Assembly: GCF_028551275.1 (NCBI RefSeq)
Contig: NZ_CP117025.1
Span: 611,001-675,000, forward strand
DNA from: Sphingomonas hankookensis
GTDB taxonomy: Bacteria > Pseudomonadota > Alphaproteobacteria > Sphingomonadales > Sphingomonadaceae
Reading direction: 5' to 3'
Length of the DNA: 64,000 nt
Under the pieces are notes generated by a model. The model had not been told where the DNA came from. It saw only the letters and a list, made by a program, of their open reading frames with translations, and did no database searches. A program made the translations under genes and the position numbers. This document shows positions 16,249 to 30,942 of this stretch, piece after piece. How positions within the stretch are numbered: position 1 is the first letter of the stretch; each line of letters starts with the position of its first letter.

Positions 16249-17052
16249 ATGTCGATCCCGCTGGCTATCCTGTTGTCCGCCGTGGCGATGACGCTGATCG
16301 TGGGCGTGCGCTATCTGCTTGCCTCGGCCGGTTTCGCCTTTGCCACGCGCGTGCGGCATCCGGGGCTGTATCGCGGCCTCGATCCGCAGATCGCCAAGGA
16401 GATTCGCTGGTCGCTGCTGTCCGCTGCCATTTACGGCATCCCCGCCGGCATCGTCGCCTGGGGGTGGCAGCATCGCGGCTGGACGGCGATCTACCGTGAC
16501 GTCGACGCGTACCCGTTATGGTATCTGCCGCTGTCGGTGCTGCTCTATCTCTTTGCGCACGACACCTGGTTCTATTGGACCCATCGCTGGATGCACCGGC
16601 CGAAATGGTTTCGCATCGCCCATGCCGTCCACCATGCCAGCCGCCCGCCGACCGCGTGGGCGGCGATGGCGTTTCACCCCATCGAGGCGCTGACCGGTGC
16701 TGTGGTAATTCCGCTACTCGTCTTCGTCATTCCGATTCATATCGGTGCACTGGCATTGGTGCTGACGACCATGACGGTTATGGGCGTCACCAACCACATG
16801 GGATGGGAAATGTTCCCCCGGTTCATGTGGGCGGGGCGATTGGGGGGCTGGCTGATTACCGCCAGCCATCATCAGAGGCATCATGAACGCTATGGCTGCA
16901 ATTTCGGGCTCTATTTCCGCTTCTGGGACCGGCTGTGCGGCACCGATGGCGGGCTTGGCGACTTCGAAAAAGAGCGCGCGCGCGCGGCGCGTCGCGCTGG
17001 CGGTGCTGGCGCTGGCGCTGTTGCCGGGGGCGATGCCGACCGGCACGCTTGA
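16249..17052 (+). CDS. Sterol desaturase / fatty-acid hydroxylase superfamily membrane protein
   Basis: A 267-residue di-iron membrane hydroxylase. Histidine clusters are H104, H112 and H116 (HDTWFYWTHRWMH), H125, H128 and H129 (HAVHH), a lone His in NHMGWEMFP, and SHHQRHHERYG near 208. Membrane helices lie near 5-25, 55-72, 90-103 and 140-180. This superfamily includes the CrtZ-type carotenoid hydroxylases, but this protein is longer and belongs to the sterol-desaturase branch. A role in modifying the carotenoid made next door is an inference. The last 35 residues are Ala/Gly/Arg-rich and lie over the start of the next gene in another frame. Confidence 0.85.
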   Translation: MSIPLAILLSAVAMTLIVGVRYLLASAGFAFATRVRHPGLYRGLDPQIAKEIRWSLLSAAIYGIPAGIVAWGWQHRGWTAIYRDVDAYPLWYLPLSVLLYLFAHDTWFYWTHRWMHRPKWFRIAHAVHHASRPPTAWAAMAFHPIEALTGAVVIPLLVFVIPIHIGALALVLTTMTVMGVTNHMGWEMFPRFMWAGRLGGWLITASHHQRHHERYGCNFGLYFRFWDRLCGTDGGLGDFEKERARAARRAGGAGAGAVAGGDADRHA

Positions 17053-17407
17053 CGTCCGGGTCAGCGACCTGCGTTCGACCAAGGGCGTGATCCGCCTCTG
17101 CCTGACCGCCGACCCCAAGAATTTTCCCGGCTGCACCGACGACCGCAACGCCGTCACCCGCACCTTCGCCGCCAATGCCGGCGGCGTGCGGATCGCGGGG
17201 CTGGGACGCGGCGACTATGCCGTGTCGGTGATCCATGACGAAAACAACAATGCGAAGCTCGACACCTTTGCCGGCATCCCGCGCGAAGGTTTCGGCTTTT
17301 CGCGCAATCCGGCGATCCGCTTCGGTCCGCCCAAGTTCAGCGCGGCGGAATTCCCGCTGGCGGGTGATGTAACCATGCAACAGGTACGGATTCGCTATCT
17401 GCTATAG
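16946..17407 (+). CDS. DUF2141 secreted protein
   Basis: A 153-residue protein started at the ATG at 16946 (MAGLATSKKSARARR, then VALAVLALALLPGAMP as a signal peptide). The mature part has the DUF2141 pattern: LDVRVSDLRSTKGVIRLCLT, YAVSVIHDENNNAKLDTF and GIPREGFGFSRNP. The function of the family is unknown. It overlaps the upstream hydroxylase by 107 bases in a different frame, and the two are plainly coupled. Confidence 0.85.
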   Translation: MAGLATSKKSARARRVALAVLALALLPGAMPTGTLDVRVSDLRSTKGVIRLCLTADPKNFPGCTDDRNAVTRTFAANAGGVRIAGLGRGDYAVSVIHDENNNAKLDTFAGIPREGFGFSRNPAIRFGPPKFSAAEFPLAGDVTMQQVRIRYLL

Positions 17408-17474
17408 TAGAAAGGACGGACCGAAGTCGGCAACGTAGCGTTACGCGGCTGTAATATTTGCCGGAGCTACGCCC

Positions 17475-18347
17475 TTGCGCGCCATTTTCGCCGCCGTCCT
17501 GACTGCCGCCGCCGCTGTTGCCGCCCCCGCCTTTGCGCAGGAAGCGGCCGGGCCGGCGGTGCCCGCCTCCGCCATGCCGAACGACGATACCGGCGGCGAT
17601 TTCTATGTCGTCGGGATCGGCGCGGCGGTGCTGCCCGATTATGAAGGGTCGGACGATTACGGCTTCACGCCGGTCCCCGCCGCCACCGGCCGGGTATCGG
17701 GGTTCAATTTCCTGCTGGCCGGCAACCGCGCCAGCGTCGACCTGATCCGCGACGGGGTCGGCCCGACCTGGGATTTCCAGGCGGGGCCGATCGCGGTGGT
17801 GAGCCTGAACCGCAACACGACCAAGGGCATCGACGATGCGCAGGTCCGTGCGCTGGGCAAGGTCGGCACCGCGATCGAACTGGGCGGTTATGTCGGCATC
17901 GGCAAGACCGGGGTCATCACCTCGCAGTTCGACCGGCTGTCGGCGTCGATCAGCTATCGCAAGGACGTGGCGGGCGGGCATGGCTCGACCGTGCTGGCAC
18001 CGACCGTGACCTATGTCACGCCGCTCAGCCTCAAGGCGATTGCCGGCATCTTCGTATCGGGCGAGCGCGTCGGCGAAGGCTATGCCGACAATTATTTCTC
18101 GATCACCCCGTCCCAGTCGTTCGCCAGCGGCCTGCCGGTCTACAATGCGCGGGGCGGGTGGAAGAACTGGACGCTCGGCGCGATCGGCGGCCATTCGATC
18201 AGCGGCGACCTGCGCTCGGGCTGGCAGCTGTTCGGCACGGTCGTCTATCGCAAGCTGCTCAACGACTTTGCCGACAGCCCGATCGTGGCGCGCAACGGGT
18301 CGAGCAACCAGTGGCTGGGCGCGGTGGGTGTGGCCTATAGCTTTTGA
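17475..18347 (+). CDS. MipA/OmpV family outer-membrane protein
   Basis: A 290-residue barrel with a signal peptide (AIFAAVLTAAAAVAAPAFAQ). The start is a TTG at 17475 with CCGGAG eight bases upstream. GDFYVVGIGAAVLPDYEGSD is the classic MipA/OmpV beginning, and the chain ends with an aromatic residue (VGVAYSF) as barrels do. Family members link murein enzymes to the outer membrane or respond to osmotic change; the exact role is unknown. It is 67 bases after the DUF2141 gene and may be in the same transcript. Confidence 0.9.
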   Translation: MRAIFAAVLTAAAAVAAPAFAQEAAGPAVPASAMPNDDTGGDFYVVGIGAAVLPDYEGSDDYGFTPVPAATGRVSGFNFLLAGNRASVDLIRDGVGPTWDFQAGPIAVVSLNRNTTKGIDDAQVRALGKVGTAIELGGYVGIGKTGVITSQFDRLSASISYRKDVAGGHGSTVLAPTVTYVTPLSLKAIAGIFVSGERVGEGYADNYFSITPSQSFASGLPVYNARGGWKNWTLGAIGGHSISGDLRSGWQLFGTVVYRKLLNDFADSPIVARNGSSNQWLGAVGVAYSF

Positions 18348-18377
18348 GGCAATGAGGGACCGATAGAACCCAGCTTC

Positions 18378-18460
18378 GTCACCCCGGACTTGATCCGGGG
18401 TCCCGCTTACTTTGCAACCGGGCAAGAGGAAGCGGGACCCCGGCTCAAGGCCGGGGTGAC
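18378..18460. repeat. Intergenic repeat family B, copy 4
   Basis: GTCACCCCGGACTTGATCC and CGGGGTCCCGCTTAC on the left, GGAAGCGGGACCCCGGCTCA and GGCCGGGGTGAC on the right. It lies between the convergent MipA-like gene and ppk2. Confidence 0.85.
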
Positions 18461-18479
18461 GGTGTATATGGGCTGAGCG

Positions 18480-19250
18480 TCAGCACGCCAGCCGGCCGTC
18501 GGTGATGGCGCTTTGGTCGAACAGGAACAGGATCTTCGGATCAGGCAGATCCTGTTCGTGGGCGATGGCGTCCGGGGCGATGCGGGCGACGACATGGGCG
18601 AGGGCGGCGATGCGGGCAGGCTTCTTGTGGTCGGCGCGGATGCAATGCCAGGGCGACAGCGCGGTGTGGGTGCGCGAGAGCATGCGGTCGCGCGCCGCGG
18701 AATAATCGTCCCACCGCTCCTGCGCCACCGCGTCGAGGTCCGAGACCTTGAGCTGCTTCAACGGATCGGTCCGCCGCGCGTCGAGCCGGGCCTTCTGCTC
18801 CTCGCGCGAGATGTCGAGCCAGAGTTTGACCAGGCGAATGCCGCTTTCGATCAGCATCCGTTCGAAATCGGGGGCGTCGCGCAGGAAGGATTCCTGTTCG
18901 GTCGCGGTCGAAAAGCCCATGACCGTCTCGACGCCCGCGCGATTATACCATGACCGGTTGAGGATCACGATCTCGCCCGCCGCCGGCAGATGCGCGACAT
19001 AGCGCTGGAAATACCATTGCGAGCGTTCGCGGTCGGACGGCTTGGGCAGCGCGACGATGCGGGTCGAGCGGGTCGAGAGATGCTCGACCATCCGCTTGAT
19101 CGTGCCGTCCTTGCCCGCGCCGTCGCGGCCTTCGAGCAGGATCACCACACGTTCGCCGCTCTTGGCTGCCGCGAGCTGGGTCTCCACCAGCGCCAGCTGC
19201 AACGCGTGCAGCCGCGATTCATAGACGTGCTTCTTCATCGCGCGCAGCAT
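18480..19250 (-). CDS. ppk2: Polyphosphate kinase 2 (PPK2)
   Basis: Transfers phosphate between polyphosphate and nucleotides. It has 256 residues when started at 19250; the ATG at 19238 (MKKHVYESRL) is an alternative. Walker A is LEGRDGAGKDGTIKR (about 39-53), Walker B is IVILNRSWYNRAGVE, and the lid is DPLKQLKVSDLDAVAQERW. A single-domain PPK2 of this size could be class I or III, and substrate choice (ADP, GDP or AMP) cannot be decided by eye. It is the last gene of the minus-strand locus that begins with the sigma factor at 28998, 38 bases after its neighbour. Confidence 0.93.
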   Translation of the reverse strand: MLRAMKKHVYESRLHALQLALVETQLAAAKSGERVVILLEGRDGAGKDGTIKRMVEHLSTRSTRIVALPKPSDRERSQWYFQRYVAHLPAAGEIVILNRSWYNRAGVETVMGFSTATEQESFLRDAPDFERMLIESGIRLVKLWLDISREEQKARLDARRTDPLKQLKVSDLDAVAQERWDDYSAARDRMLSRTHTALSPWHCIRADHKKPARIAALAHVVARIAPDAIAHEQDLPDPKILFLFDQSAITDGRLAC

Positions 19251-19288
19251 GACATGCGCGCCGTGCCGCCGAAAGCGGTTTGGCGCGC

Positions 19289-19903
19289 TCAGGCGGGGCG
19301 AACCGGCTGGCGCAGGATCGTGCGCAGCCGGGCGGGCGCGGTCCTGCGCGGGTCGCTCAGGTAGATTTCATGGTGCGGCCCGGCGAAGGTGAGGTTTAGG
19401 GCGGGCATGACCGTGTCGTGCAGGCGGTGCAGGACCGGTCCCTCTTCGTCATAGCTGCCGATGTGCAGAATCTGGAGCGAACGCCCTTCGGCCAGGGGTT
19501 CGAAGCGCAGCGAGGGCGGGCGGTCGTCGCGCTTTGCCAGCATCTTCGCGACCGCTTGCTCGAACAGGGCCGGTGTTACGAAGTCGGGCGCCATGATCAT
19601 GACCGTCCAGTGCCAGCGGTCCTTTTCGCGGCGGACGAAGCTGCCCGGATCGTCCGACCACCACAGCGCCTCCAGCGGCGGCACGACATAGTCGCGGCTG
19701 AGCGTCGCCTTTGCGGCGAACTTCATCGCATAGCTGACGCCGTAGAGCCATTCGACGGCAGTGCGATAGGCGGCGGCGGTGTTCGGATCGCCCGCACCGT
19801 CGACCTTCACGAACGTCATGGGCGGGACGACGATATCGGCGAAATCGCGTGTCGGCGGGTGGTAGAGGTCGCGAAACTGTCGCTTCAGATCGATCTTTTC
19901 CAT
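19289..19903 (-). CDS. GyrI-like small-molecule-binding domain protein
   Basis: A 204-residue protein started at the ATG at 19903 with an AGGAGC ribosome site. VVPPMTFVKVDGAGDPNTAAAY and RWHWTVMIMAPDFVT, then LQILHIGSYDEEGPVLHRLH and HEIYLSDPRRTAPARL, match the single-domain GyrI-like/SRPBCC-type ligand-binding proteins. Some relatives bind or hydrolyse hydrophobic small molecules. The HHEIYLSDP ending is typical of the family. It sits between the cytoplasmic hydrolase and ppk2 with short gaps, and its ligand is unknown. Confidence 0.82.
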   Translation of the reverse strand: MEKIDLKRQFRDLYHPPTRDFADIVVPPMTFVKVDGAGDPNTAAAYRTAVEWLYGVSYAMKFAAKATLSRDYVVPPLEALWWSDDPGSFVRREKDRWHWTVMIMAPDFVTPALFEQAVAKMLAKRDDRPPSLRFEPLAEGRSLQILHIGSYDEEGPVLHRLHDTVMPALNLTFAGPHHEIYLSDPRRTAPARLRTILRQPVRPA

Positions 19904-19920
19904 GGGTGCTCCTTCGGAGT

Positions 19921-20799
19921 TCACAGGCGATGTTCGACCAGGAAGAGGCCCAGTTCGACGCGGAAGCGGTCCTGCGCCTCGATCTGCGCCAGATGGCCGC
20001 AATCGGGCACGATCACGAGGCGCGCACGCGGCATCTGGGCGGCGGCGCGACGCGAATCGGCGGGGGCGACCAGGCGGTCGTTCGCGCCGTGGAAGAACAG
20101 GGTGGGGGCCGGGATCGACCCGACGCGGTCGCTCAGGTCGTTTCGCAGGTGGGTGGGCGCGAGCGACGCCTGGTTATAGCGCAGATAGGCGATGCCCGCC
20201 TGGTCGCGGGCCGCTTCCCGGACGAAGCGTTCTGCGATCCCGGGCGGCAGGGTCGCGGGATCGGCCACCATGCGGCGGATGAGCTGCCCGACATGGCGGT
20301 TGCCCCAGCGCACCAGCGGCAACAGCAGCGCGTCGGGCAACTGCGCCGCCGCCCATGCCAGCAGCTGCACGGCAGGATTGCGGACCCGCGGCGCAAGGCC
20401 GCCGGGCGCGACGAGGACGAGACCCGCGACCCGATCGGGCGAGCGCAGCGCGAGGTTCAGCGCGACATCGCCGCCCATCGACACCCCGGCGACGATGACG
20501 CGATCGACCCCGACGCGATCGAGTGCATCGCCGACGATATCCGCCATCGCCGCCGCGCTGCCCACCGGGTCGAGCGACAGGCTGGCGCCGAAGCCCGGCA
20601 GGTCGGGCGCGACGACCATCCGGTCGGCGGACAGGGGCCCGATCAGCCGCGCCCAGGCGATCGCGGCCCGGTCCATGCCGCCGCCATGGATCAGGACGAT
20701 CGGCAGGCGTGGACCAGCCTGTCCGGCGACGATGACGCCAACGGCACCGGCCCGCGTCGGCACGCGCCGGATCGGCAGCGAGCACGCGTCGCCGATCAT
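19921..20799 (-). CDS. Alpha/beta hydrolase (cytoplasmic)
   Basis: A 292-residue alpha/beta hydrolase started at the ATG at 20799 after GGTGAG. The oxyanion segment is VLIHGGGMDR, the nucleophile elbow GVSMGGD (Ser about 120), the acid is likely the Asp in FHGANDRLVAP, and the His is in DCGHLAQIEAQ. No signal peptide is visible, in contrast to the three hydrolases just upstream. The order suggests it processes a product brought in by the system. The exact reaction is unknown. Confidence 0.88.
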   Translation of the reverse strand: MIGDACSLPIRRVPTRAGAVGVIVAGQAGPRLPIVLIHGGGMDRAAIAWARLIGPLSADRMVVAPDLPGFGASLSLDPVGSAAAMADIVGDALDRVGVDRVIVAGVSMGGDVALNLALRSPDRVAGLVLVAPGGLAPRVRNPAVQLLAWAAAQLPDALLLPLVRWGNRHVGQLIRRMVADPATLPPGIAERFVREAARDQAGIAYLRYNQASLAPTHLRNDLSDRVGSIPAPTLFFHGANDRLVAPADSRRAAAQMPRARLVIVPDCGHLAQIEAQDRFRVELGLFLVEHRL

Positions 20800-20853
20800 C
20801 GTCGGCTCACCGGTTCGGCGCACCGACCGCGAGGCGGTGCGCCTGACGGATCA

Positions 20854-22203
20854 TCAGCGCAGCGTCGCATCGGGCTTGCGGCCCTGTTCGACCCATCCGC
20901 GCAGCGCGTTCCACGCGGCCAGCGTCTGCGTCTTGTCGAAGCCGCAATGGGTATAGCCCTCGATCCCGCCGATGGGCAGCAGGGCGCGGGTCGCAGGGAC
21001 GGTGAACTGGGTGAGCTTCGCGGTCCGCCCCGCCTTTGCCACCGCGGCGGCGAGCATCGCTTCCTGCGCATAGGGCACGAGCGAATCGATGCGGTTGTGG
21101 ATCGTCACCAACGGCGCGCCGATCCGGCCGGTGGCGGTGCGCCATTCGCGCAGATAGGCGAGCGCGCGCGGTGCCGCCGTCACCCGCTGGATATCGCGGT
21201 TCAGCGCGGCATTCTCCTCCGCCGACAGCGACGATGCGCGATAGGTTTTGCCGACATTGCCATGGAACCATCCACCGGCGGTCGCGGCCATGTCCTCGGC
21301 ACCCAGCGCGGCGGTGACCAGCGGATAGGCGAGCGAGGCAGCGTCATAGTCGAAGCCGCCGATCTCGGTGACGGCGCGCACGATCCGCGCCTCGCGGCCG
21401 TTCGGGTCCTTTTGTGCAGCGGTCCATAGCGCCAGCGGCGGCATGCCGACCTTGGCGATCTGACCGAAGACATAGGCCTGCGCGGCGGCATCGGGCGTGC
21501 CGGCGGGCGGCAGCGGCGAGACCGCGTCGCGGCGGACGTCGGCATTGCCGGGCAGCGCATAGGGCGTGCCCCGGGTCAGCACGGCATAGGCGAGGCGCAT
21601 GTCGATCAGCCGGCCGAGGATATCCTGCCAGCTGGCGACGACGCCGCAGCGCGCGAACCCGCCGGCGAACGCGGTCGGATAGCGTTCGAGCAGCGTGACC
21701 ACGATCCCGCCGCCCATCGAATCACCCATCGCATAGATGCGCTTGCCGCCCATCTGCGCCAGCAGGTCGCGCAGCCGGGCGGTGGCTTTCGTGCCCGCTT
21801 CGACGCCCAGCCCCGCCTTGGCATAGGCGCTGTGGCCGACGGCATAGCCCTGGCGATAGGCTTCGCCGAGCGCGCCGGTGCCCGGTCCCTTGTCGACCGG
21901 ATCGGGGGATACCGCGACCGGGGTGCCGGGGGTCGAATAGCCATGGGCGTAGAGCAGGCCGTCGCCCGACCACCCCTTGGGAAAGGCCAGCGCGAACTGG
22001 TTGCCGTCGAGCCGGCCGTTGATCGTCACGCCGCCGTCGGCGCGGGGCGTCGCGGTGACGTCGACGGCGCCCAGCCGCGTCGCCTGTGCCGTGAGCGTCT
22101 GCTGCCGCGCGGCGGGTGCGTCCTGCGCGGCGGCGGGCGGAATCGGGGCGGCCGCGAGCGCAGCACCGGCGAGGAGCAGGGACATCAGGGGAAAGGCGCG
22201 CAT
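20854..22203 (-). CDS. Secreted alpha/beta hydrolase, paralogue of the 23269-24609 protein
   Basis: A 449-residue protein with a signal peptide (MRAFPLMSLLLAGAALAAAPIPPAAAQ). The probable catalytic Ser is in YAMGDSMGGGIVV (about 165), the Asp in HNRIDSLVPYAQE and the His in IEGYTHCGFDKTQ. These match the same three positions in its neighbour, and the two share the overall layout (NPNGREARI versus NPQGPEARI, RGTPYALPG versus AGTPYALPG). I do not recognise a named enzyme family beyond alpha/beta hydrolase. It follows the middle esterase by 16 bases. Confidence 0.82.
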   Translation of the reverse strand: MRAFPLMSLLLAGAALAAAPIPPAAAQDAPAARQQTLTAQATRLGAVDVTATPRADGGVTINGRLDGNQFALAFPKGWSGDGLLYAHGYSTPGTPVAVSPDPVDKGPGTGALGEAYRQGYAVGHSAYAKAGLGVEAGTKATARLRDLLAQMGGKRIYAMGDSMGGGIVVTLLERYPTAFAGGFARCGVVASWQDILGRLIDMRLAYAVLTRGTPYALPGNADVRRDAVSPLPPAGTPDAAAQAYVFGQIAKVGMPPLALWTAAQKDPNGREARIVRAVTEIGGFDYDAASLAYPLVTAALGAEDMAATAGGWFHGNVGKTYRASSLSAEENAALNRDIQRVTAAPRALAYLREWRTATGRIGAPLVTIHNRIDSLVPYAQEAMLAAAVAKAGRTAKLTQFTVPATRALLPIGGIEGYTHCGFDKTQTLAAWNALRGWVEQGRKPDATLR

Positions 22204-22219
22204 CGGGCGTACTCCGTGT

Positions 22220-23272
22220 TTAACGAGGGCGGCGGCCGAGATGCCGGTCGAAGAAGCGGGCGACCAGGCGAAAGGCTTCGGTCGATTCGGGCATGTCGGG
22301 CCACATGAAGAAAGCGTGGGGCAGGCCGTCGAACAGTTGCAACTCGCTCGCCACGCCGGCAGCGGTCAGGCGGCGATGGGCGAGGGTCAGCGCGCTGACC
22401 GCGAAGTCGCGTCCGCCCGCCAGCAGCAGCGTCGGCGGCATCGCGTGGGTTTCGGTGTCCGAGCGCAGCGGATAGGCGGCAGGGTCGTCAGCCGCCACGC
22501 CCGCCATATAGGGGGTCGGCAAGGTCGCGGGCAGAACGGGCGTCGGCAACGCCTCTTCCCCGGTCATCGGCCCGGCCCAATGGGGGCTGTCGCCCGAATA
22601 GGGCGCGCCGGTGCCGCAAAAGGTCCCGATCGCGCCGGGGCGGGGCAGTCCGATGCGGCGGAGCCATGCGGTCGCCTGCGCGGTGATGACGCCGCCCGCC
22701 GAACAGCCATAGATGCCGATATTTTCCGGCCGATGCGTTTTGAGCAGGGCGCGATAGATCGCCGCCACATCCTGCGACGCCGCCGGATAGCGATGTTCGG
22801 GCGCCAGCCGATAGTCGAGCGTGACGACCCGCACCCGCATCGTCGCCGCGATCGGGATCGCCTCGACCAGCGCGCCGCTGCCCGATCCCCAGAGAAAGGC
22901 ACCGCCATGGACGTTGATAAGCACGCGACCGGCATTGCCGGGGGCGATGCCGGCCACCGGATCGACGATGGTGACGGGGACGCCCGCGATACGCTCCCGC
23001 CGTTCGCGCGTAGCGAAATGGCGGCGCATCTCGGCGCGGCGGCGGTCGTTCCATTGCTGGTAGAAGGCGCGTTGCTGCGCGAGGTCGCCGGCAATGGTCT
23101 TGGGCGCGGTTTCCGCCTGCATCCGCACCAGCACCGTGCGCGCCTCGTCGCTCAGCTGGCTGGACGGGGGCAGGGTGAAGGCGGGCACCGCCACCGATTG
23201 CGCCATCGCCGGTGCGCTCCCCAAGCCGATCAGGGCGATCGTCAAGTCGACAAGGAAGCGGTGCAGGGTCAT
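22220..23272 (-). CDS. Secreted HSL-type esterase/lipase (alpha/beta hydrolase 3)
   Basis: A 350-residue esterase started at the ATG at 23272, which overlaps the upstream stop (ATGA). Residues 1-25 are a signal peptide (FLVDLTIALIGLGSAPAMAQ). The HSL-family oxyanion motif HGGAF is in LINVHGGAFLWGSG, the nucleophile elbow is GCSAGGV, the Asp is in AGGRDFAVSA and the His in DGLPHAFFMW. DYRLAPEHRYPAA is a further signature. HSL-type esterases cut short acyl esters. It lies between the two paralogous hydrolases. Confidence 0.9.
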   Translation of the reverse strand: MTLHRFLVDLTIALIGLGSAPAMAQSVAVPAFTLPPSSQLSDEARTVLVRMQAETAPKTIAGDLAQQRAFYQQWNDRRRAEMRRHFATRERRERIAGVPVTIVDPVAGIAPGNAGRVLINVHGGAFLWGSGSGALVEAIPIAATMRVRVVTLDYRLAPEHRYPAASQDVAAIYRALLKTHRPENIGIYGCSAGGVITAQATAWLRRIGLPRPGAIGTFCGTGAPYSGDSPHWAGPMTGEEALPTPVLPATLPTPYMAGVAADDPAAYPLRSDTETHAMPPTLLLAGGRDFAVSALTLAHRRLTAAGVASELQLFDGLPHAFFMWPDMPESTEAFRLVARFFDRHLGRRPR

Positions 23273-24609
23273 CGTACCGCATCCGCCGCGGGCCGGCGCC
23301 CGGTGCGGACCCAGCTGCGCATCGCATCGAACGCGGCGATGTTCTGCGCGGGCGTGAACCCGCAATGGGTATAGCCGGTCAGCCCGCCGGGCAGCGGGAT
23401 CGTCGTCGGCGGCACCGCATATTGCGCCAGCCGCGCGCTGTTGCCGGCGGCGGCGGCGATCCGGCCCAGCCCCTGCGTCTGCGCGAACGGCACCAGCGAA
23501 TCGATCGTCTGGTGGACGGTGACCAGCGGGATACGGAACCGGCCCGTCGCCTCATGCCAGCGCCGGGCATAGGCGACCGCGCGCGGATCGGCATCATAGC
23601 GCTGCATCCGGCGGTTGAAGTCCGCCGCCTGCGCCGCATCCATTTCAGGCGGGGCATAGACGGTGTCGCGGTTGCCGATCGGCAGGCCGCCCATCGTCGC
23701 ACGGATATCGTCCATACCGAGCGCGGCGGACGAGATCGGTGCGCCCAGCGCCGCCGGGTCGGGCGCGAAGCCGCCGATCGCCGCCATCTGCCGGATGATG
23801 CGCGCTTCCGGTCCCTGCGGGTTCGCCTTCGCGGCGAGGAACAGCGCGAGGATCGGCGACAGCAGCTTCATCTTCTGCGCTTCGCGAAACGCCTCACCCG
23901 ATGTCGGATCGCCGGGGGGCGGCACGATCGGCAGCGCCGAGCGGGTCAGGTCCTTGCCGCCCGGCAACGCATAGGGCGTACCGGCGGTCAGCACGTCATA
24001 GGCGCCGCGCATGTCGGCCAGTTGCCGGAACATCGTCAGCCACCCCTGCGTCACGCCGCACATCGCGACCGCGCCGGAAAAGGCGTTGGGGTGGTTCTCG
24101 ATCAGCGACAGGACGATGTTGCCGCCCATCGACCCGCCTACCGCGTAGAAGCGCTTCGCCCCCAGCTTCGCCGCCAATGCGCGCAGCCGCATGGTGTTGC
24201 GGGTCGCCGTTTCGGTCGCGATGCCGTTCTTGTCGACCGCGGCGATGCCGCTGGCGATCCCCTGCGCATAGAGATGCTTGAACAGCCCGCCGCCGGGGTC
24301 CTTGGCCAACGGATCGGTGGGTACGCTGGGCGGCGTGCCCGGCAGAGCATAGCCCTGTCCGAACAGCACCGTCTCGCCGGTCCAGTTCGACGGGATCGTC
24401 AGGACGAAGCGGCGTCCCTCGACGCTGCCGTGCAGGATCATGCCGCCGCCGGGTGCCGCCGTCGCGGCGAGGGCGGTGGCGCCGGCCGCGCGTGCCTTTG
24501 CCTGCAAGGCAGTCTGGGCAGCGGTCGGCTGGAAGGTGGGTGGTGCCTGCCGGGCAATGCCGGTGCCGGCCAGCAGGGCGACGGGAAGGAGGATCGCGTG
24601 GCGCATCAT
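23269..24609 (-). CDS. Secreted alpha/beta hydrolase, paralogue of the 20854-22203 protein
   Basis: A 446-residue protein with a signal peptide (MMRHAILLPVALLAGTGIARQ); GAGGGGAG precedes the start, eleven bases after the receptor's stop. The likely Ser is in YAVGGSMGGNIVLSL, the Asp in HQTIDSLVPFAQT and the His in LTGYTHCGFTPAQ. GDPTSG and TAGTPYALPGGKDLTRS follow the same order as in the paralogue. The pair probably arose by duplication before or after the esterase between them was inserted. The substrate is unknown. Confidence 0.82.
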   Translation of the reverse strand: MMRHAILLPVALLAGTGIARQAPPTFQPTAAQTALQAKARAAGATALAATAAPGGGMILHGSVEGRRFVLTIPSNWTGETVLFGQGYALPGTPPSVPTDPLAKDPGGGLFKHLYAQGIASGIAAVDKNGIATETATRNTMRLRALAAKLGAKRFYAVGGSMGGNIVLSLIENHPNAFSGAVAMCGVTQGWLTMFRQLADMRGAYDVLTAGTPYALPGGKDLTRSALPIVPPPGDPTSGEAFREAQKMKLLSPILALFLAAKANPQGPEARIIRQMAAIGGFAPDPAALGAPISSAALGMDDIRATMGGLPIGNRDTVYAPPEMDAAQAADFNRRMQRYDADPRAVAYARRWHEATGRFRIPLVTVHQTIDSLVPFAQTQGLGRIAAAAGNSARLAQYAVPPTTIPLPGGLTGYTHCGFTPAQNIAAFDAMRSWVRTGRRPAADAVR

Positions 24610-24620
24610 GGCCGCTCCCC

Positions 24621-27383
24621 TCAGAAGCGATAGCGGAGCTGGACGCCATATTGCGCCGGCTCGCCATAGATCGAGCCGATAAAGCCCGAATTATTGTAGC
24701 TGGGATTGGCGGTCACGCGGTACGCCCGGTCGAGGATGTTGGTGCCGTAGAAGGCGAGGTCGAGCGGGAAGCCGCGCACTTCGCGCCAGTCGAGCCGGAC
24801 GTTGAGCAGGCCGTAGCCGGCGATGGTGTCGAACGGCTGCGCCTCCGGCGTGACGCGCTGGCTGGTCTGGTACGACCAGTTGCCGCTCAGCTGCAACGTC
24901 CCCTCCTGTTCCGGAATCGGCAGGTCGAGGCTGGCGGTCAGATTGTACTTGTGCTTCGGCACGAACGAGAACGGCGTGCCGGCCAGGTCGCGGCTCGGCT
25001 GCGCGGCGGTCAGCGCCTGCGGGATCGCGGGGATCGCGATCGTGTCATATTGCAGATACTTGGCCGAGTTGTACGAATAGGTCGCGCCGAGCGTCACGCC
25101 CTTGACCGGGACCAGCATGCCTTCGAACTCCAGTCCCATCACCCGCGCGCGCTGGGCATTGGTCAGGATGTCCGAACCGGCGATCGCCGCGCGCTGGATC
25201 ACCTGGATATCGTTGTACCAGGTATAGAAGGCGGCGAGGTTGGTGCGAGCGCGCACGTCGCCGAAGGTCCAGTCGCGCTTCAGCCCGACTTCGGCATCGG
25301 TCACCTGTTCGGGCTTCACCGCGAACAGCGGGTGGTCTTCGCCCAAAAACAGCGACACGATCGGGTTGCTCGCCCCAGACTTGTAGCCCCGCCGCGAGAC
25401 GGCATAGAGCAGGGTCTGCGGATCGGCCTGCCAGTCGAGGCCCAGCTGCCAGGTCGGCCCGTTGCTGGTGCCGCGGAAGGTCGCAGCGGTGCAGTTCGGG
25501 TATTTGAGCGTGGGCACGCGCCCGGCCGCGACCGCCCGGTATGCGTCATAGACGCACAGCCCGGCGTTCAGCCCGACGATCTGCGCCGCCTGTGCCGGGT
25601 TGATGATGCCGAGCGCGGCGAGCCGGTTGAAGACCTGATAGCTTGCCGGATCCTGATAGCTCTGGATATCACCGCCGAATTCGTCCCACGTCCAGCGAAA
25701 GCCGGCGGTGGCGGTCAGCGTCGGCACGATCTTGTACTGGACCTGCGCATAGGCCGCCTTGCTGTGCCCGTCGACATGGGCGCTCGGTTGCAGGGTCAGC
25801 GCGGGGACGAGCGGGCTGGTGAGGCCGAGCGCCGCCTGCAACGGCTGCGGAATCAGCAGCGGGCCGCCGCCGAGGATACCGCCGGCCTGCAACGGGTTGA
25901 CCGTCGCAAAGGTGAGCGGCGCGGGGGTCTTCTGGTCGAGGAAGAAGCCGCCTGCCTGTACGCGGAGCGTGCCGTTGTCGTAGCGGGCCTGCACCTCTTC
26001 GGTGATGGTGCGCAAATTGTTGTTCCAGCTGCCCGGATAGGCGCCGAGCAGGTCGGCGATCGGCAGCGTCGTCGAATCGCGATCGGTGGCGCTGGTCGAG
26101 CGGGTGCGGGCGTAGCTGAAGATGTTCTTGAGCGTGAAGGTATCGCTGACGCGCCATTCGGTGTTGTTGAGGACGAGGAAGTTCTTGGCCTTCTCGAACG
26201 TGGGCACGCTCAGCGCCGTCCGGCGGACGCCGCGCGCCTGCTGCGCGGCGAGATAGGGTTGCAGGAGCGCGGCATAGGGGCGGGCGGGATTGACCGCGAG
26301 CAGGATGCTGCCGCCGCCATTTTCGTCCACTTCCTGATAGCTGACGGCGGTATAGTTGCTGATCGTCGCCGACGGATCGAACTGGATGCCGAGGCGCAGG
26401 CTGAAATTGTTGCGGTTGAGATAGTCGCGGCCGGTCACGACGTCGCGGACATAGCCTTCGCGCTGGTCCAGTTGTCCCGCGACGCGGATCGCGAGCATGT
26501 CGTCGACGATCGGCACGTTCAGCGCACCCTGCACGCTCTTGCGCTCAAGGTTGCCGATCGTGCCGTCGACATAGCCTTCGACCCGGTTCATCCGTGGCCG
26601 CTGCGGCTCCAGCAGGACGGCACCACCGGTCGTGTTGCGCCCGAACAGCGTGCCCTGCGGCCCTTTGAGCACCTGGAGCGAGGCGAGGTCGTAGAAATTG
26701 CCCGGGCCGCTGACGCTGGTGGGCACTTCGGCGAAATAGCCGACCACGCCCGGACCGCTGCCCGCCCCCGGACCGCCGGTGCCGCCCATGCCGCGGATGG
26801 TATAGGTTTCCTGGTTGCGCGCGACATCGCCGACCACCGATAGCGACGGGGTGAAATTCTGCAGGTCGGTGCCGTTGTTGATCCCCTTTTCCCGGATCGC
26901 ATCCTGCGAGAAGGCGGTGATCGCGACGGGCACGCGCTGGCCGCGTTCGGCGGTGCGCCGCGCGGTGACGACGATGTCGCCGATGCTGTCATCCTCCTGC
27001 GCAGGTGCCGCGGTCGGTTCCGCCACCGGTGCGACCGCCGCCGTGCGATCCGCGACCGGCATCCGCGTCACGGCGATCGCGCCGCTGCGATCGCGATGCA
27101 GGACGAGACCCGACCCGCCGACGACCGCCCGTAACGCCGCCATCGCGTCCAGCTTTCCGCGAACCCCGCGCGAGCGCAGCGCATCGACTTCGTCGCTGCG
27201 ATAGAGCACCGGCGTACCCGCCTGGCGCGACCAGGCATCGAGCGCCGCCCGCATCGAACCGGGCGCAATGCTGTAGGTGCGGACCCGGTTTACAGTTTCC
27301 GTTCGCGCCTGCGCCCATGAAGGCGTTGTCGCGCAGTTACTTGCCAGTGCTGCCGCTACCAGGAACCGATGCTTTCCGGTCAT
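24621..27383 (-). CDS. STN-domain TonB-dependent receptor (transducer type)
   Basis: A 920-residue outer-membrane receptor started at the ATG at 27383, behind the strong ribosome site GGAGGGGG. After the signal peptide comes an STN domain (YSIAPGSMRAALDAWSRQ, VLYRSDEVDAL, LRAVVGGSGLVLHRD, residues about 40-110), which in FecA-like receptors contacts the periplasmic anti-sigma factor. A TonB-box-like DIVVTARR then leads into the plug (GTDLQNFTPSLSV, YTIRGMG, LQVLKGPQGTLFGRNTTGG). The barrel ends in an aromatic residue (VQLRYRF). With the FecI and FecR genes upstream it probably reports its own substrate. Confidence 0.93.
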   Translation of the reverse strand: MTGKHRFLVAAALASNCATTPSWAQARTETVNRVRTYSIAPGSMRAALDAWSRQAGTPVLYRSDEVDALRSRGVRGKLDAMAALRAVVGGSGLVLHRDRSGAIAVTRMPVADRTAAVAPVAEPTAAPAQEDDSIGDIVVTARRTAERGQRVPVAITAFSQDAIREKGINNGTDLQNFTPSLSVVGDVARNQETYTIRGMGGTGGPGAGSGPGVVGYFAEVPTSVSGPGNFYDLASLQVLKGPQGTLFGRNTTGGAVLLEPQRPRMNRVEGYVDGTIGNLERKSVQGALNVPIVDDMLAIRVAGQLDQREGYVRDVVTGRDYLNRNNFSLRLGIQFDPSATISNYTAVSYQEVDENGGGSILLAVNPARPYAALLQPYLAAQQARGVRRTALSVPTFEKAKNFLVLNNTEWRVSDTFTLKNIFSYARTRSTSATDRDSTTLPIADLLGAYPGSWNNNLRTITEEVQARYDNGTLRVQAGGFFLDQKTPAPLTFATVNPLQAGGILGGGPLLIPQPLQAALGLTSPLVPALTLQPSAHVDGHSKAAYAQVQYKIVPTLTATAGFRWTWDEFGGDIQSYQDPASYQVFNRLAALGIINPAQAAQIVGLNAGLCVYDAYRAVAAGRVPTLKYPNCTAATFRGTSNGPTWQLGLDWQADPQTLLYAVSRRGYKSGASNPIVSLFLGEDHPLFAVKPEQVTDAEVGLKRDWTFGDVRARTNLAAFYTWYNDIQVIQRAAIAGSDILTNAQRARVMGLEFEGMLVPVKGVTLGATYSYNSAKYLQYDTIAIPAIPQALTAAQPSRDLAGTPFSFVPKHKYNLTASLDLPIPEQEGTLQLSGNWSYQTSQRVTPEAQPFDTIAGYGLLNVRLDWREVRGFPLDLAFYGTNILDRAYRVTANPSYNNSGFIGSIYGEPAQYGVQLRYRF

Positions 27384-27428
27384 ATTCCCCCTCCGATACT
27401 GCACGGCCTCTTCGGGCCTTCTGCAATG

Positions 27429-27443
27429 CTAGACGGACGGCAG
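27429..27443 (-). promoter_or_regulatory. Shared motif upstream of the receptor (possible ECF promoter)
   Basis: On the minus strand CTGCCGTCCGTCTAG, 46 bases before the receptor's start. A 13-of-15 match, CTGCCGTCCGACTGG, lies 41 bases before the sigma-factor gene at 29039-29053. The equal position before two genes of the same system suggests an element recognised by the sigma factor itself. The full minus-35/minus-10 arrangement could not be established. Confidence 0.35.
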
Positions 27444-27466
27444 GCGGAAAGTCGTAACGCGACCGA

Positions 27467-28435
27467 TCAGGAATCTATCGTGATCGCATCGACGTCTTCG
27501 CGCACCGTCAGTCCGAACCCGGCGTGCAGCAGTCGTGCGAATGCATCGATGTCGGTCGCCTCGAACGTGCCGCCGATCCGGATCTGCGCCGCGCGTGCAT
27601 CGGCGATCCGGATCTGCCGGCGGTTATAGCGGTTGAACTCGGCGGCGGCCTCGCCCAGCGTCGTCCGGTCGAAGGTCAGCATCCCCTGCCGCCATGACAG
27701 CGCCGCCTCCACCCGCGCCGGCGATCGGTCGGTCAGCAGCATCGACGTGCCGCGCGCGATGGCGACATTGCCGGCGGTGATGACCGCCGCCCGCCCCCGC
27801 TCGCCACCGGCGGCATCCTCCACTCGGACCCGGCCCTCGACGACGGCGACGGTGACCGTGCGACCATCGCGCCGTACCGAAAACCGGGTGCCAAGCACCG
27901 TCACCATCCGGTCGCCTGCGTGGATGACGAAGGGATGGCTGCTGTCGTGGGCCACATCGAAATAGGCCTCGCCGCGATCGAGCCAGACGGCGCGCCGACC
28001 CCCGTCGATCGCGGTGCGCAGCGTGCTGGCGGTATTGAGCGTCACCGCGCTGCCATCGGGCAGGCGCAGCGCGCGATGTTCGCCGATGGTGGTGGCGAAG
28101 CGGCGCAGCAGCGGCGGATCGCGCCGGAGCAGGTCCGGCAGCGCGATCGCGGCGAACAGGCAGAGCAGCACCAGACTGGCCGCCAGCGCCTGCAGCGCCC
28201 GGCTGTTCAGAAGGGCGACGCGGCGGGGCACCGGTTCGACCGGGGTGCTTCGCATGGCGGCTAGCCGCGCGGTCGCGTCCCAACCGGCCTCGAGCCGCCA
28301 CAGCGCGGCCTTGTGCGCATCGCTTTCGTCCAGCCAGGCCGCCAGCGCGGTATCGTCCGCCGCGCTCCATTCGGGCTGGTCGCGCCGCACCAGCCACGCG
28401 GCGGCACGCGCTTCGATCTCGGGGCGGGCGGTCAT
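27467..28435 (-). CDS. FecR-type anti-sigma factor / sigma regulator
   Basis: A 322-residue protein. Residues 1-60 are a cytoplasmic FecR N-terminal domain (AAAWLVRRDQPEWSAADDTA, LAAWLDESDAHKAALWRLE). One membrane helix follows at about 82-100 (LQALAASLVLLCLFAAIALP), then the periplasmic FecR domain (LPDGSAVTLNTASTL, RGEAYFDVAHDSSHPFVIHA, VLGTRFSVRRD). The C-terminal STN-like DUF4974 region carries EFNRYNRRQIRIAD. It holds the sigma factor inactive until the receptor signals. The start overlaps the sigma gene's stop (ATGA). Confidence 0.94.
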   Translation of the reverse strand: MTARPEIEARAAAWLVRRDQPEWSAADDTALAAWLDESDAHKAALWRLEAGWDATARLAAMRSTPVEPVPRRVALLNSRALQALAASLVLLCLFAAIALPDLLRRDPPLLRRFATTIGEHRALRLPDGSAVTLNTASTLRTAIDGGRRAVWLDRGEAYFDVAHDSSHPFVIHAGDRMVTVLGTRFSVRRDGRTVTVAVVEGRVRVEDAAGGERGRAAVITAGNVAIARGTSMLLTDRSPARVEAALSWRQGMLTFDRTTLGEAAAEFNRYNRRQIRIADARAAQIRIGGTFEATDIDAFARLLHAGFGLTVREDVDAITIDS

Positions 28436-28998
28436 GGCGTCCGCTTCCGTCGCGGGGCCAGCCCCGGCGTGCGGTCGATCCGCGCCGTGCCGCCCAGCAT
28501 GAAATTGGCGAGCGCGCGCAGGCCGAGCGTCAGCTGGCGCTCGACGGTGTGGTGGCCCACCCCCAGCCGGGCGGCGGTTTCGCGGATGTTCAGCCCCTCG
28601 ACCCGCCGCAGCCGGACGACCTCGCGGCAGCGCGGCGGCAGCTGGTCCAGCCCCGCCATCGCCCGGCGCAGCTCGTCGCGGGCGCCCAGCGCACGATCCG
28701 CCTCGGTCAGGTCGGGCACGTTCAGCTCGTCGAGATCGGCCATCTGTTCGAACGACACCACCTTCGCCCGGCGCGCCCGATCGATCAGCAGGTTGCGGGC
28801 GATGGTCAGGACGAACGGCCGCGTGTTCAACGGAATCCCCCGGCGCGCGGCACCGACCGCATGTTCGTACACCTCCTGCCGAAGGTCGATCACGTCATCC
28901 CGCGCCCGGCAATGGCGCGCCAGATAGCGTTCGAGGTCGCGCTCCAGCGGAAGCACGTCCGCGACGAACCAGCGTTTGAGGACATCATCGTCGATCAT
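28432..28998 (-). CDS. ECF sigma factor, FecI type
   Basis: A 188-residue sigma factor started at the ATG at 28998 (MIDDDVLKRWFVADVLPLE). A TTG ten codons upstream is an alternative. Region 2 is DDVIDLRQEVYEHAVGA and PFVLTIARNLLIDRARR; region 4 is LPPRCREVVRLRRVEGLNIR with ETAARLGVGHHTVERQL. It is coupled to the FecR gene and heads the uptake/hydrolase locus. Confidence 0.94.
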   Translation of the reverse strand: MIDDDVLKRWFVADVLPLERDLERYLARHCRARDDVIDLRQEVYEHAVGAARRGIPLNTRPFVLTIARNLLIDRARRAKVVSFEQMADLDELNVPDLTEADRALGARDELRRAMAGLDQLPPRCREVVRLRRVEGLNIRETAARLGVGHHTVERQLTLGLRALANFMLGGTARIDRTPGLAPRRKRTP

Positions 28999-29038
28999 CA
29001 GAGGGTAATGACGAATGACACGCGCCAACCCGTAACGT

Positions 29039-29053
29039 CCAGTCGGACGGCAG
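29039..29053 (-). promoter_or_regulatory. Shared motif upstream of the sigma factor gene
   Basis: CTGCCGTCCGACTGG on the minus strand, 41 bases before the sigma-factor start. It matches the motif at 27429-27443 in 13 of 15 positions. See that entry. Confidence 0.35.
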
Positions 29054-29112
29054 ATCGATGGAATCGAAAGATATTCACCCGGACGGGCGACCGGCCCGCA
29101 GACAAGTGCCTG

Positions 29113-29139
29113 CGGGGACCGTCGTTCCGACGATCCCCG
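29113..29139 (-). terminator. Displaced tRNA-Leu terminator hairpin (left island end)
   Basis: CGGGGACCGTCG, three bases, CGACGATCCCCG: a 12-base stem. Its one mismatch becomes a U-G pair in a minus-strand transcript, the direction of the tRNA. The same hairpin in a diverged form follows the intact tRNA at 35213-35248. No T-run is present. Confidence 0.55.
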
Positions 29140-29166
29140 AAGCTGTTTCGACGCTATGCGAAGAAA

Positions 29167-29183
29167 TGGTGCCCAGAAGAGGA
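29167..29183. other. attL-like copy of the tRNA-Leu 3' end
   Basis: TGGTGCCCAGAAGAGGA is identical to the 3' end (CCA included, read on the minus strand) of tRNA-Leu(CAG) at 35271-35287. The preceding 60 bases are also similar between the two places. This is the displaced 3' end left by insertion of an integrative element at the tRNA. The intact tRNA is at the other boundary next to the integrase remnant. Confidence 0.75.
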
Positions 29184-29405
29184 GCGAGCGGGGGCGAGCG
29201 GGTGGCTTCCACCTCGACCGGGGAGTTTTCTCCTACCTTTTCAGTGTCAGCGGGTTCGAGTCCCAGAAGAGCACTCGAATCGTGAGCGACCGTAGCAGGA
29301 CCATCGTCAGGAGCGCCGCAGGATGCGTTGCCGGTGGGAATGACGCCTTGGGGCATCTCGTCCGCCTTGATGTCGTGATGGTGCTCCACGGGGCTTTGTG
29401 ACGGC

Positions 29406-30002
29406 TTACGCGGCATGGGCCATCGCGGTCTTGATGCGGTGAACGGTTCCGACACCGACGCGGAGCTTCTTGGCCGTCTTGTTGATGCTCAGGCCACCGC
29501 TGAGCAGTCGTTCGATGTGGCGCTGCTTATCGACGTCGAGGCGGGGGCGACCGCCTTTCTTGGTCGAGCGGGCCAGCCCCGACTTCACCCGCTCGGAGAT
29601 CATGGCGCGCTCGAACTCGGCGAACACGCCCATCATGCCGAACATCGCGCGGCCCGATGGCGTGCTGGTGTCGATAGCTTGGACGTGGAGGTAGAGATCG
29701 ACGCTTCGGGCATCGAGGTCGCCGAGGATGGAGACGAGATGCTGGAGGGACCGACCGAGGCGGCAGATGCTCCATGATGCCACCATGTCGAACTCACGAC
29801 GGGCGATGCCCTTGAGCATGGCGTCAAGGCCGGGTCGTTGATCTCGTCCTTTGGCACCTGAGATGCCTTCGTCGGCGAAGGTGGCGACGATGTCCCAACC
29901 GAGCCGTTCACCGGCGAGGCGAAGGTCACGGAGTTGGTTCTCGACGGTCTGTTGTCCGTCAGCGGTGGAGACGCGGGTGTAGAGGGCGACGCGCTTGGGC
30001 AT
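29406..30002 (-). CDS. Serine recombinase of the resolvase/invertase family
   Basis: A 198-residue protein. The catalytic Ser is in ALYTRVSTADGQQ (about residue 12), with DEGISGAKGRDQRPGLDAML, the arginine-bearing CRLGRSLQHLV and the long E-helix FGMMGVFAEFERAMISERV. A short C-terminal helix-turn-helix follows (GGLSINKTAKKLRVGVGTVHRI). The size is that of small resolvases and invertases, and all catalytic residues seem present. It is the only recombinase in the island that looks intact. Confidence 0.93.
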   Translation of the reverse strand: MPKRVALYTRVSTADGQQTVENQLRDLRLAGERLGWDIVATFADEGISGAKGRDQRPGLDAMLKGIARREFDMVASWSICRLGRSLQHLVSILGDLDARSVDLYLHVQAIDTSTPSGRAMFGMMGVFAEFERAMISERVKSGLARSTKKGGRPRLDVDKQRHIERLLSGGLSINKTAKKLRVGVGTVHRIKTAMAHAA

Positions 30003-30022
30003 GGCGCGAGACTCTCACGGAT

Positions 30023-30051
30023 ACCAAAATCGTCAAGAAAATGGTTTTGGT
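30023..30051. promoter_or_regulatory. Inverted repeat between the recombinase and the divergent gene
   Basis: ACCAAAA, 15 bases, TTTTGGT. It lies 20 bases upstream of the recombinase start and just before the ATG of the divergent gene at 30058. Small resolvases often bind sites in front of their own gene, so this could be a recombination half-site or an operator. It is AT-rich against a GC-rich background. Confidence 0.4.
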
Positions 30052-30057
30052 GTGGGC

Positions 30058-30567
30058 ATGGTTGCCCGCTCCGATTCCCAAACGCAGTTCATCGCCGAAT
30101 ACCGGTTCAAGTTTCCTCATCCGTGGAATCGCCCGATAACGACTGTTGCCGCCGGTCACTTGACGCTTGATGTCCGCGTCAACGGGGGCAATTTTGATGC
30201 AGAATACGTCGGTGCGTTCGACGGCACCGATCTGGTCGCGGTGATGAACACATGGGGACCGGAAGGCCCACTGCCTTACCGGCATATCGGCAAAACCATT
30301 GTTGCTCCGGCATATCAGGGCCACGGCATCACTCGACAGATCATCGAATGGTGGGTGACGTCGCGCAACGAGTGCCTCGCCTCGGACGAGAACCAGACCC
30401 ACGATGGCGCGAGGGTCTGGGAATCGATGATCATGCGTGCGCCCCGGCTCCGGTTCTACCTATGGCACCCCGACGGAACCGAGATCGAGTTGATCGTCGA
30501 TGAGGGCCGGATCGTTCCCGACCCGTGGTCCGATCCTCACACTCGGCTGCTCGCCCGTCCCCGGTGA
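30058..30567 (+). CDS. Hypothetical island protein, possibly GNAT-like
   Basis: A 169-residue protein when started at the ATG at 30058; the frame is open to 29995, but that would overlap the recombinase. I do not recognise the family with certainty. KTIVAPAYQGHGITRQIIEWW resembles the acyl-CoA-loop region of GNAT acetyltransferases. LASDENQTHDGARVWESM resembles a segment seen in phage and plasmid acetyltransferase-like proteins. Codon use is less GC-biased than in the flanking core genes. Confidence 0.6.
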   Translation: MVARSDSQTQFIAEYRFKFPHPWNRPITTVAAGHLTLDVRVNGGNFDAEYVGAFDGTDLVAVMNTWGPEGPLPYRHIGKTIVAPAYQGHGITRQIIEWWVTSRNECLASDENQTHDGARVWESMIMRAPRLRFYLWHPDGTEIELIVDEGRIVPDPWSDPHTRLLARPR

Positions 30568-30908: not shown

Positions 30909-30942
30909 GCTCCGATAATACCATCGGGTCAGCAGAGCCGCA

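What the first reader, a model, noticed from the sequence alone, without database searches (positions are those of the whole stretch)
18480..29053. Nine-gene sigma/anti-sigma/TonB-receptor locus with three secreted hydrolases: candidate uptake-and-cleavage system for an unknown ester
Directly seen: FecI-type sigma, FecR, STN-domain receptor, three signal-peptide-bearing alpha/beta hydrolases, a cytoplasmic alpha/beta hydrolase, a GyrI-like ligand-binding protein and PPK2, all on one strand with gaps of -4 to about 83 bases. Known: FecA/FecR/FecI systems sense their own substrate through the STN domain. Inferred: the receptor imports or senses a compound whose ester bonds are cut by the periplasmic hydrolases, with products finished in the cytoplasm. 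The layout resembles polysaccharide utilisation loci but with esterases instead of glycosidases. I know of no described system with this composition.
Basis: partly seen in the sequence, partly recalled or inferred. Interest (0 to 1): 0.72.

Follow-up and report, generated by a model that had tools for sequence, protein, structure and literature searches.

The report
Sugar-ester uptake locus, stripped down
A Sphingomonas chromosome carries a surface-sensing gene set that most likely imports an ester-decorated sugar and strips off its acyl groups; its relatives in other species still carry the sugar-cutting enzymes that this copy lacks, which points to the kind of food molecule involved.

Summary
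The nine genes are there, but they are not one unit. The conserved unit is six genes: ECF sigma (fecI), anti-sigma (fecR), an STN-bearing TonB receptor and three secreted alpha/beta hydrolases (hydA, HSL, hydB). abhC, gyrI and ppk2 lie beside it in none of the 30 other receptor loci examined. Receptor and hydA/hydB occur in the same 3 of 396 genomes of the order, adjacent each time. In 29 of 31 loci the esterases sit with a GH1 beta-glucosidase, in 16 also a trehalase. Only the window type and S. paucimobilis L014 lack GH1; L014 keeps a stub of it. So 'esterases instead of glycosidases' is a reduced form of a locus for acylated saccharides. A two-part promoter, GTTACG-N17-CGTC, lies before fecI and the receptor gene; a refined form, drawn from these two sites, has no other perfect copy in the genome. 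In other species FecI/FecR plus STN is replaced by LacI, an STN-less receptor and an MFS transporter, apparently several times. The substrate is unproven; the boldest reading is acylated trehalose glycolipids. New variant of a known kind (TonB carbohydrate-utilisation loci).

The parts
29009..29036 (-). ECF-type promoter of fecI (GTTACG, 17-base gap, CGTC)
   Evidence: pattern before fecI in 13 of 15 FecI loci with that stretch held; by conservation only, not by transcription
28432..28998 (-). fecI, ECF sigma factor (listed ORF starts at 29028; ATG 28998 preferred because the promoter pattern spans 29009-29036)
27467..28435 (-). fecR, anti-sigma/sigma regulator; overlaps the fecI end by 4 bases
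   Evidence: PF04773 4.6e-23
27431..27458 (-). ECF-type promoter of the receptor operon
   Evidence: before the receptor in 10 of 16 FecI loci by the strict pattern, 14 of 16 by a looser one
24621..27383 (-). TonB-dependent receptor with N-terminal STN signalling domain
23269..24609 (-). hydA, secreted alpha/beta hydrolase; S160, D370, H415; invariant C184 and C416
22220..23272 (-). HSL, secreted GCSAG-motif hormone-sensitive-lipase-family esterase (listed ORF from 23365)
   Evidence: (PMGL2 E 1.4e-139)
23269..23272 (-). ATGA overlap of hydA stop and HSL start: the place where 29 of 31 receptor loci have a GH1 beta-glucosidase gene after the first hydrolase or receptor
20854..22203 (-). hydB, secreted paralogue of hydA (47%)
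19921..20823 (-). abhC, alpha/beta hydrolase without an evident signal peptide; co-directional neighbour, not part of the conserved unit
   Evidence: 1 of 61 genomes at E 1e-20 (the own genome only)
19289..19903 (-). GyrI-like protein; neighbour, not part of the conserved unit
   Evidence: 4 of 61 genomes with own; the other three (G011, G023, G054) have no hydA match
18480..19250 (-). PPK2 polyphosphate kinase; neighbour, not part of the conserved unit
   Evidence: 21 of 61 genomes with own; in G033, which has the module, PPK2 lies over 1.6 Mb away

Best explanation
A dedicated, surface-signalled import-and-deacylation locus for an acylated saccharide or glycoside, and a reduced member of a family of carbohydrate-ester utilisation loci. 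An acylated sugar binds the receptor; its STN domain signals through FecR to FecI; FecI switches on its own gene and the receptor-hydA-HSL-hydB operon through two matching promoters. The imported ester is deacylated in the periplasm by three (elsewhere up to four) esterases. In most relatives the freed saccharide is then cut by GH1 and in part by GH42, GH3 or trehalase, and in some the acid is activated by an acyl-CoA ligase. In this genome GH1 and the ligase are gone from the locus, so the released sugar must be handled by unlinked enzymes or only the acyl part is used. Shown from sequence: gene content, co-occurrence, promoter pair as a conserved pattern, absence of GH1 with a stub in a relative, regulator swap. 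Inferred: sugar-ester substrate, order of steps, sensing by STN, cell location of the enzymes, operon structure.
For: Among 31 receptor loci: GH1 29, HSL 29, second HSL 18, trehalase 16, second GH1 14, MFS 11, GH42 7, GH3 6, acyl-CoA ligase 8 (two of them, L028 and L042, only 35% and 27% like the reference); module genes on one strand in 30. Motifs kept (matches covering at least 75%): GH1 29 of 29, second GH1 14 of 14, HSL 30 of 30, hydA/hydB 65 of 65, trehalase signatures 15 and 16 of 16, second HSL 17 and 18 of 18. Receptor and hydA in the same 3 of 396 genomes. GH1 stub in L014: 26 of the first 27 bases of the GH1 gene follow hydA. Promoter pattern: 27 of 28 loose matches in 16 FecI loci lie at fecI or the receptor gene, against 2 matches in 12 other loci, neither at a module gene start. 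STN in 16 of 16 FecI/FecR loci and none found in 10 LacI loci; LacI loci have MFS and trehalase in 10 of 10, FecI loci in 0 and 3 of 16. No Fur-box-like site beyond the background's 95% point. Ligase nearest to fatty-acid-activating enzymes. A hydA relative in Solimonas sits with GH2, an MFS_2 sugar transporter, an HSL-like esterase and a beta-lactamase-fold protein.
Confidence: 0.68

Rival explanations
1. Hydroxycinnamate, gallate or other aromatic-acyl glucosides: the tannase-like hydrolases remove aromatic acids, GH1 removes glucose.
For: The hydA model's best Foldseek matches are feruloyl esterases and MHETase (E 5e-10 to about 1e-8); hydB touches the Tannase profile weakly (E 3.5e-4, under its cut-off).
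Against: No aromatic catabolic family among the recurrent module genes (flanking genes were not all scanned); the ligase of the loci is nearest to fatty-acid activators; trehalase in 16 of 31 loci is unexplained.
Confidence: 0.13
2. Iron uptake: a glycosylated ester siderophore (salmochelin-like, recalled) is imported, hydrolysed and deglycosylated, as FecI/FecR/STN receptors usually serve iron.
For: Receptor has weak similarity to siderophore receptors (TIGR01783 77.8 bits, cut-off 223.5); FecI/FecR/STN architecture.
Against: No Fur-box-like site in the window (low power) or before fecI beyond the background's 95% point (1 of 15 and 3 of 15 loci just reach it for the two forms tried); LacI, MFS, trehalase, GH42/GH3 in relatives; no iron-specific family among the recurrent module genes.
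Confidence: 0.07
3. After losing GH1 and the ligase, this lineage's locus serves a different, non-sugar ester (short-chain lipid or polyester fragment).
For: GH1 absent in L012 and L014; PMGL2, a relative of HSL, was assayed with p-nitrophenyl butyrate (PMC6986724, passages).
Against: The receptor is still 93-95% identical to those of loci with GH1 (L013, L015), so the imported compound is probably the same.
Confidence: 0.1

Closest known systems
CUT loci (carbohydrate utilisation with TonB receptor), e.g. the sucrose locus suxA-C/suxR of Xanthomonas campestris (PMC1790865, passages seen)
   Same: TonB receptor plus degradative enzymes plus regulator in one locus; LacI and MFS in the LacI-type relatives
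   Different: Up to four esterases beside the glycosidases; FecI/FecR/STN regulation in the window; no transporter and no glycosidase in the window copy
FecI/FecR/FecA cell-surface signalling
   Same: ECF sigma, FecR, STN-bearing receptor, sigma-type promoter before the receptor gene
   Different: No clear Fur box; fecI carries the same promoter pattern (self-activation inferred); hydrolases follow the receptor; LacI variants in relatives
Tannase/feruloyl esterase/MHETase family (PF07519), compared with hydA/hydB
   Same: Best Foldseek matches; Ser-Asp-His with a Cys straight after the His
   Different: No Pfam match for hydA, hydB under cut-off; the residue before the catalytic Ser is not Cys in any of 122 near or 17 distant rows; the CS-D-HC motif is recalled
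GCSAG-motif hormone-sensitive-lipase-family esterases (PMGL2, 6qin)
   Same: HSL is a member by curated cut-off
   Different: PMGL2 comes from a metagenome library (abstract) and no natural substrate was seen in the passages; here the gene is tied to a receptor

Membership tests
FecI/FecR/receptor cell-surface signalling | ECF sigma and FecR genes beside the receptor | tested here: met
FecI/FecR/receptor cell-surface signalling | N-terminal STN domain on the receptor | tested here: met
   (2a02, 2m5j); Pfam E 0.0016, below its cut-off; 16 of 16 FecI loci have it (15, L026)
FecI/FecR/receptor cell-surface signalling | sigma-dependent promoter before the receptor gene | tested here: inconclusive
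   conserved two-part pattern; no transcription or binding data
FecI/FecR iron systems | Fur box before fecI | tested here: not met
   (consensus forms partly from recall; low power in a high-GC genome)
CUT locus | TonB receptor with substrate-degrading enzymes in one locus | tested here: met
CUT locus | inner-membrane sugar transporter in the locus | tested here: not met
   none among the nine genes and in 0 of 16 FecI loci; 11 of 31 loci in all (10 LacI and L039)
CUT locus | locus needed for growth on a carbohydrate | not testable with these tools
   needs mutants
Bacteroidetes-type PUL | SusD-like protein beside the receptor | tested here: not met
   no SusD family among the Pfam hits of the nine genes
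Tannase family PF07519 (hydA/hydB) | profile match over the curated cut-off | tested here: not met
   none for hydA at E 0.001; 20.0 bits against 29.8 for hydB
Tannase family PF07519 (hydA/hydB) | Cys next to the catalytic Ser (CS-D-HC, recalled) | tested here: not met
   position 159 is G 79, D 14, A 10, S 10, T 7, I 1, gap 1 of 122; C184 and C416 in 122 of 122 and in 17 of 17 distant rows from 15 loci
GCSAG HSL esterases (HSL) | NF058650 over cut-off | tested here: met
   516.8 bits, cut-off 410

The most novel reading that the evidence does not exclude
The family of loci scavenges acylated trehalose-type glycolipids, such as beta-glucosylated acyl-trehaloses of actinobacteria (structures recalled): esterases free the acyl chains, GH1/GH3/GH42 remove beta-linked sugars, trehalase splits the core, the ligase activates the fatty acid. 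It would be a dedicated TonB system for bacterial glycolipids, with a modular swap between surface sensing (STN-FecR-FecI) and cytoplasmic sensing (LacI plus MFS) within one substrate locus.
Probability: 0.15. Interest if true: 0.78.

Novelty: new variant of a known kind. Interest (0 to 1): 0.54.

Why it matters
It names a concrete unsolved substrate question and makes it testable: a rare, patchily distributed locus whose fuller relatives tell which chemistry to try (acylated beta-glucosides and trehaloses). It also offers a natural experiment on regulation: the same receptor barrel has its signalling domain where FecI/FecR stand beside it and lacks it where LacI does, and the LacI versions carry an inner-membrane transporter. 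The sigma factor may have a nearly private promoter, useful as a sensor part. The hydA/hydB family is a secreted hydrolase family without a solved relative by sequence.

Tried and rejected
Nine-gene unit: rejected, the last three genes do not travel with the rest. GH1, trehalase or ligase merely moved elsewhere in the genome: the genome's GH1 is 46% and its trehalase 55% identical to locus references and its best ligase match 38%, so no clear orthologue of GH1 or ligase; trehalase undecided. Plasmid origin: no receptor match in 72,556 plasmid records at E 1e-100. Sigma-70-type promoters: none in 17300-29500, where 1.1 are expected by chance. Leader hairpin before the receptor ATG: suggestive single folds in some of 14 loci against plain shuffles, but the alignment gave no consensus structure; left open. 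Sequence search of solved structures with hydA gave no credible relative (best E 0.0099). Ligase motif: my first pattern was miswritten and matched 0 of 9, a second one 2 of 10; a wider one matches 9 of 10, all but L042.

Literature: ten searches of the open-access library with terms on acylated glycosides, trehalose lipids, acylsugars, LipA, FecI/LacI receptor loci, PMGL2. Four gave no paper; in the others I saw listings and opened three papers for passages (PMC1790865, PMC6986724, PMC4403928). No listing named a described system of this composition; the library is partial. PMC4403928 was opened for the M. kansasii glycolipid core, but the passages gave no structure.

L020-L022 have identical receptors and count three times among the 10 LacI loci. 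L025, L029, L039, L044 and L045 have no FecI/FecR pair or LacI recognised; L029 and L039 are cut by contig ends, and L044 has a TetR-type gene there instead. L059, a short match, was left out of the table. One search gives two hydrolases in 27 loci, but L051's pair is two pieces of one gene, so 26. Absence of STN in LacI loci rests on similarity and on the short N terminus (41-63 residues before the plug part), not on Pfam. Strict promoter pattern: 13 of 15 at fecI, 10 of 16 at the receptor; L016 and L026 lack it at the receptor even in loose form, L026 and L042 at fecI; L040's fecI upstream is not held; one site (L013:3047) lies away from the module. In one search five further genomes showed only weak hydA matches (E 3e-13 to 6e-5).
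Full report
What is there. The window lies in contig 1 of a 3.95-Mb genome. All nine proteins are 100% identical to those of L012, deposited as Sphingomonas hankookensis CN3. Nine minus-strand genes match the finding. With corrected starts: fecI 28432-28998, fecR 27467-28435, STN receptor 24621-27383, hydA 23269-24609, HSL 22220-23272, hydB 20854-22203, abhC 19921-20823, gyrI 19289-19903, ppk2 18480-19250.

The conserved unit is smaller. A scan of the genome-contig collection with patterns from an alignment of 21 hydA/hydB relatives gave 56 loci. Of the 40 nearer ones taken further (L012-L051) plus G033 (L073), 31 carry a receptor of at least 49% identity beside the hydrolases. Hydrolases of the hydA type are in all 31 by construction, two or more in 26 (27, less L051, whose pair is one broken gene); HSL in 29; module genes point one way in 30 of 31. 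abhC, gyrI and ppk2 are found only in L012. In whole genomes sampled without that selection, receptor (E up to 1e-150) and hydA (E up to 1e-80) are found in the same 3 of 396 genomes of the order; in another sample of 61 relatives only the own genome and G033 have strong hydA matches. So the locus is rare and coherent. gyrI is in 4 of 61, ppk2 in 21 of 61 and abhC in 1 of 61 genomes, own included; in three relatives with ppk2 neither abhC nor gyrI was found in the fetched flanks, and in one with gyrI no ppk2.

The missing glycosidases. In 29 of the 31 loci a GH1 beta-glucosidase gene is present, directly after hydA in loci such as L013 and L015; 14 have a second GH1, 16 a GH37 trehalase, 7 GH42, 6 GH3, 8 an acyl-CoA ligase (two of the eight ligases are only 27-35% like the reference). 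GH1 catalytic motifs are intact in 29 of 29 and trehalase signatures in 15 and 16 of 16. Only L012 and S. paucimobilis NBRC 13935 (L014) lack GH1. L014 keeps 26 of the first 27 bases of the GH1 gene after hydA, and in the window the HSL start uses the same ATGA overlap with the hydA stop that GH1 uses in L013 and L015. So the window copy is a reduced one. L013, L014, L016 and L049 have the ligase straight after hydB; the window has abhC there.

Regulation. After fecR and before fecI, FecI-type loci share GTTACG, 17 bases, CGTC. The strict pattern stands before fecI in 13 of 15 loci with that stretch held and before the receptor in 10 of 16; a looser form (one of two bases free in the first box, gap 16-18) in 14 of 16; 2 matches, neither at a module gene start, occur in 12 loci with other or no regulators. 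In the window a refined pattern, drawn from its two sites, matches only these (27431-27458 and 29009-29036) even at two mismatches, 0.21 expected. In the whole genome they are the only perfect matches; with one mismatch there is one more, and the backward control has two. I infer a dedicated sigma factor that activates its own gene and the receptor operon.

Regulator swap. STN is found in 16 of 16 FecI/FecR loci (15 by similarity to the window's STN, L026 by Pfam, E 2.5e-5) and not in 10 of 10 LacI loci, whose receptors have only 41-63 residues before the plug part. On a quick receptor tree the two-state label needs 4 changes; starred branches force at least 3 for the LacI group. All 10 LacI loci have an MFS transporter and trehalase; FecI loci have 0 and 3 of 16. 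This fits the logic that LacI must sense a sugar inside the cell, so its locus brings an inner-membrane transporter, while STN-FecR-FecI senses at the surface. That logic is inference.

Substrate. Up to four esterases, beta-glycosidases, trehalase and a fatty-acid-type ligase point to acyl groups on a beta-glucosyl and perhaps trehalose-containing saccharide. The hydA family outside the module again meets sugar genes: in Solimonas L046 an MFS_2 sugar transporter, GH2 and a beta-lactamase-fold protein; in L032, L036 and L041 two DUF2961 proteins, a TonB receptor and altronate dehydratase nearby, though convergent to the hydrolase. In Pseudoxanthomonas L033 it stands with an HSL and a ligase but no receptor was recognised. 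No Fur-type site stands out.

Known or new. The kind is known: TonB-receptor carbohydrate utilisation loci (CUT; PMC1790865, passages) and FecI/FecR surface signalling. The composition, esterase-heavy with a regulator that changes together with the receptor's STN domain, did not appear in the listings of ten searches of a partial open-access library. I rate it a new variant of a known kind.

Noticed in passing
window 29406-33551: Serine resolvase (29406-30002, minus) and a transposase gene with Mu-transpos_C_2 and rve domains (IS21-like, recalled; 32019-33551) lie just upstream of fecI, with GC down to 0.59 at 30001-32000; fits a locus that was carried in.
   Followed up: partly
window 13322-17407: Downstream flank has an amine-oxidase-family gene, lycopene cyclase, a fatty-acid-hydroxylase-family gene (carotenoid genes, names recalled) and a DUF2141 protein.
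   Followed up: partly
L074 (G000:C1:2315000-2325000): The same genome has a second sugar-type locus with a GH1 (46% to the locus GH1), a TonB receptor (28%) and a GH3-like gene (32%).
   Followed up: partly
L052-L067: Distant hydA relatives, mostly 25-37% identical in the best segment, in Chloroflexota and Deinococcales keep the Ser, Asp, His and both Cys; their contexts were not studied.
   Followed up: no
L032, L036, L041: hydA relatives near a TPR-sulfotransferase, a TonB receptor, a permease and two DUF2961 (GH172-type, recalled) proteins in Phenylobacterium and related MAGs; perhaps a furanoside-ester locus.
   Followed up: partly
window 27384-27430 and the same place in other FecI loci: Possible small hairpin in the receptor mRNA leader between promoter and ribosome site (L042: 0 of 300 plain shuffles as stable; most others weaker; no consensus from the alignment).
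   Followed up: partly
window 28998-29013: The fecI promoter's CGTC ends 11 bases before the preferred ATG, so the fecI message may be nearly leaderless.
   Followed up: no
L051 (Sphingopyxis sp. PET50): HSL and the hydA-type gene each appear in two pieces, so this copy of the locus looks decayed.
   Followed up: no
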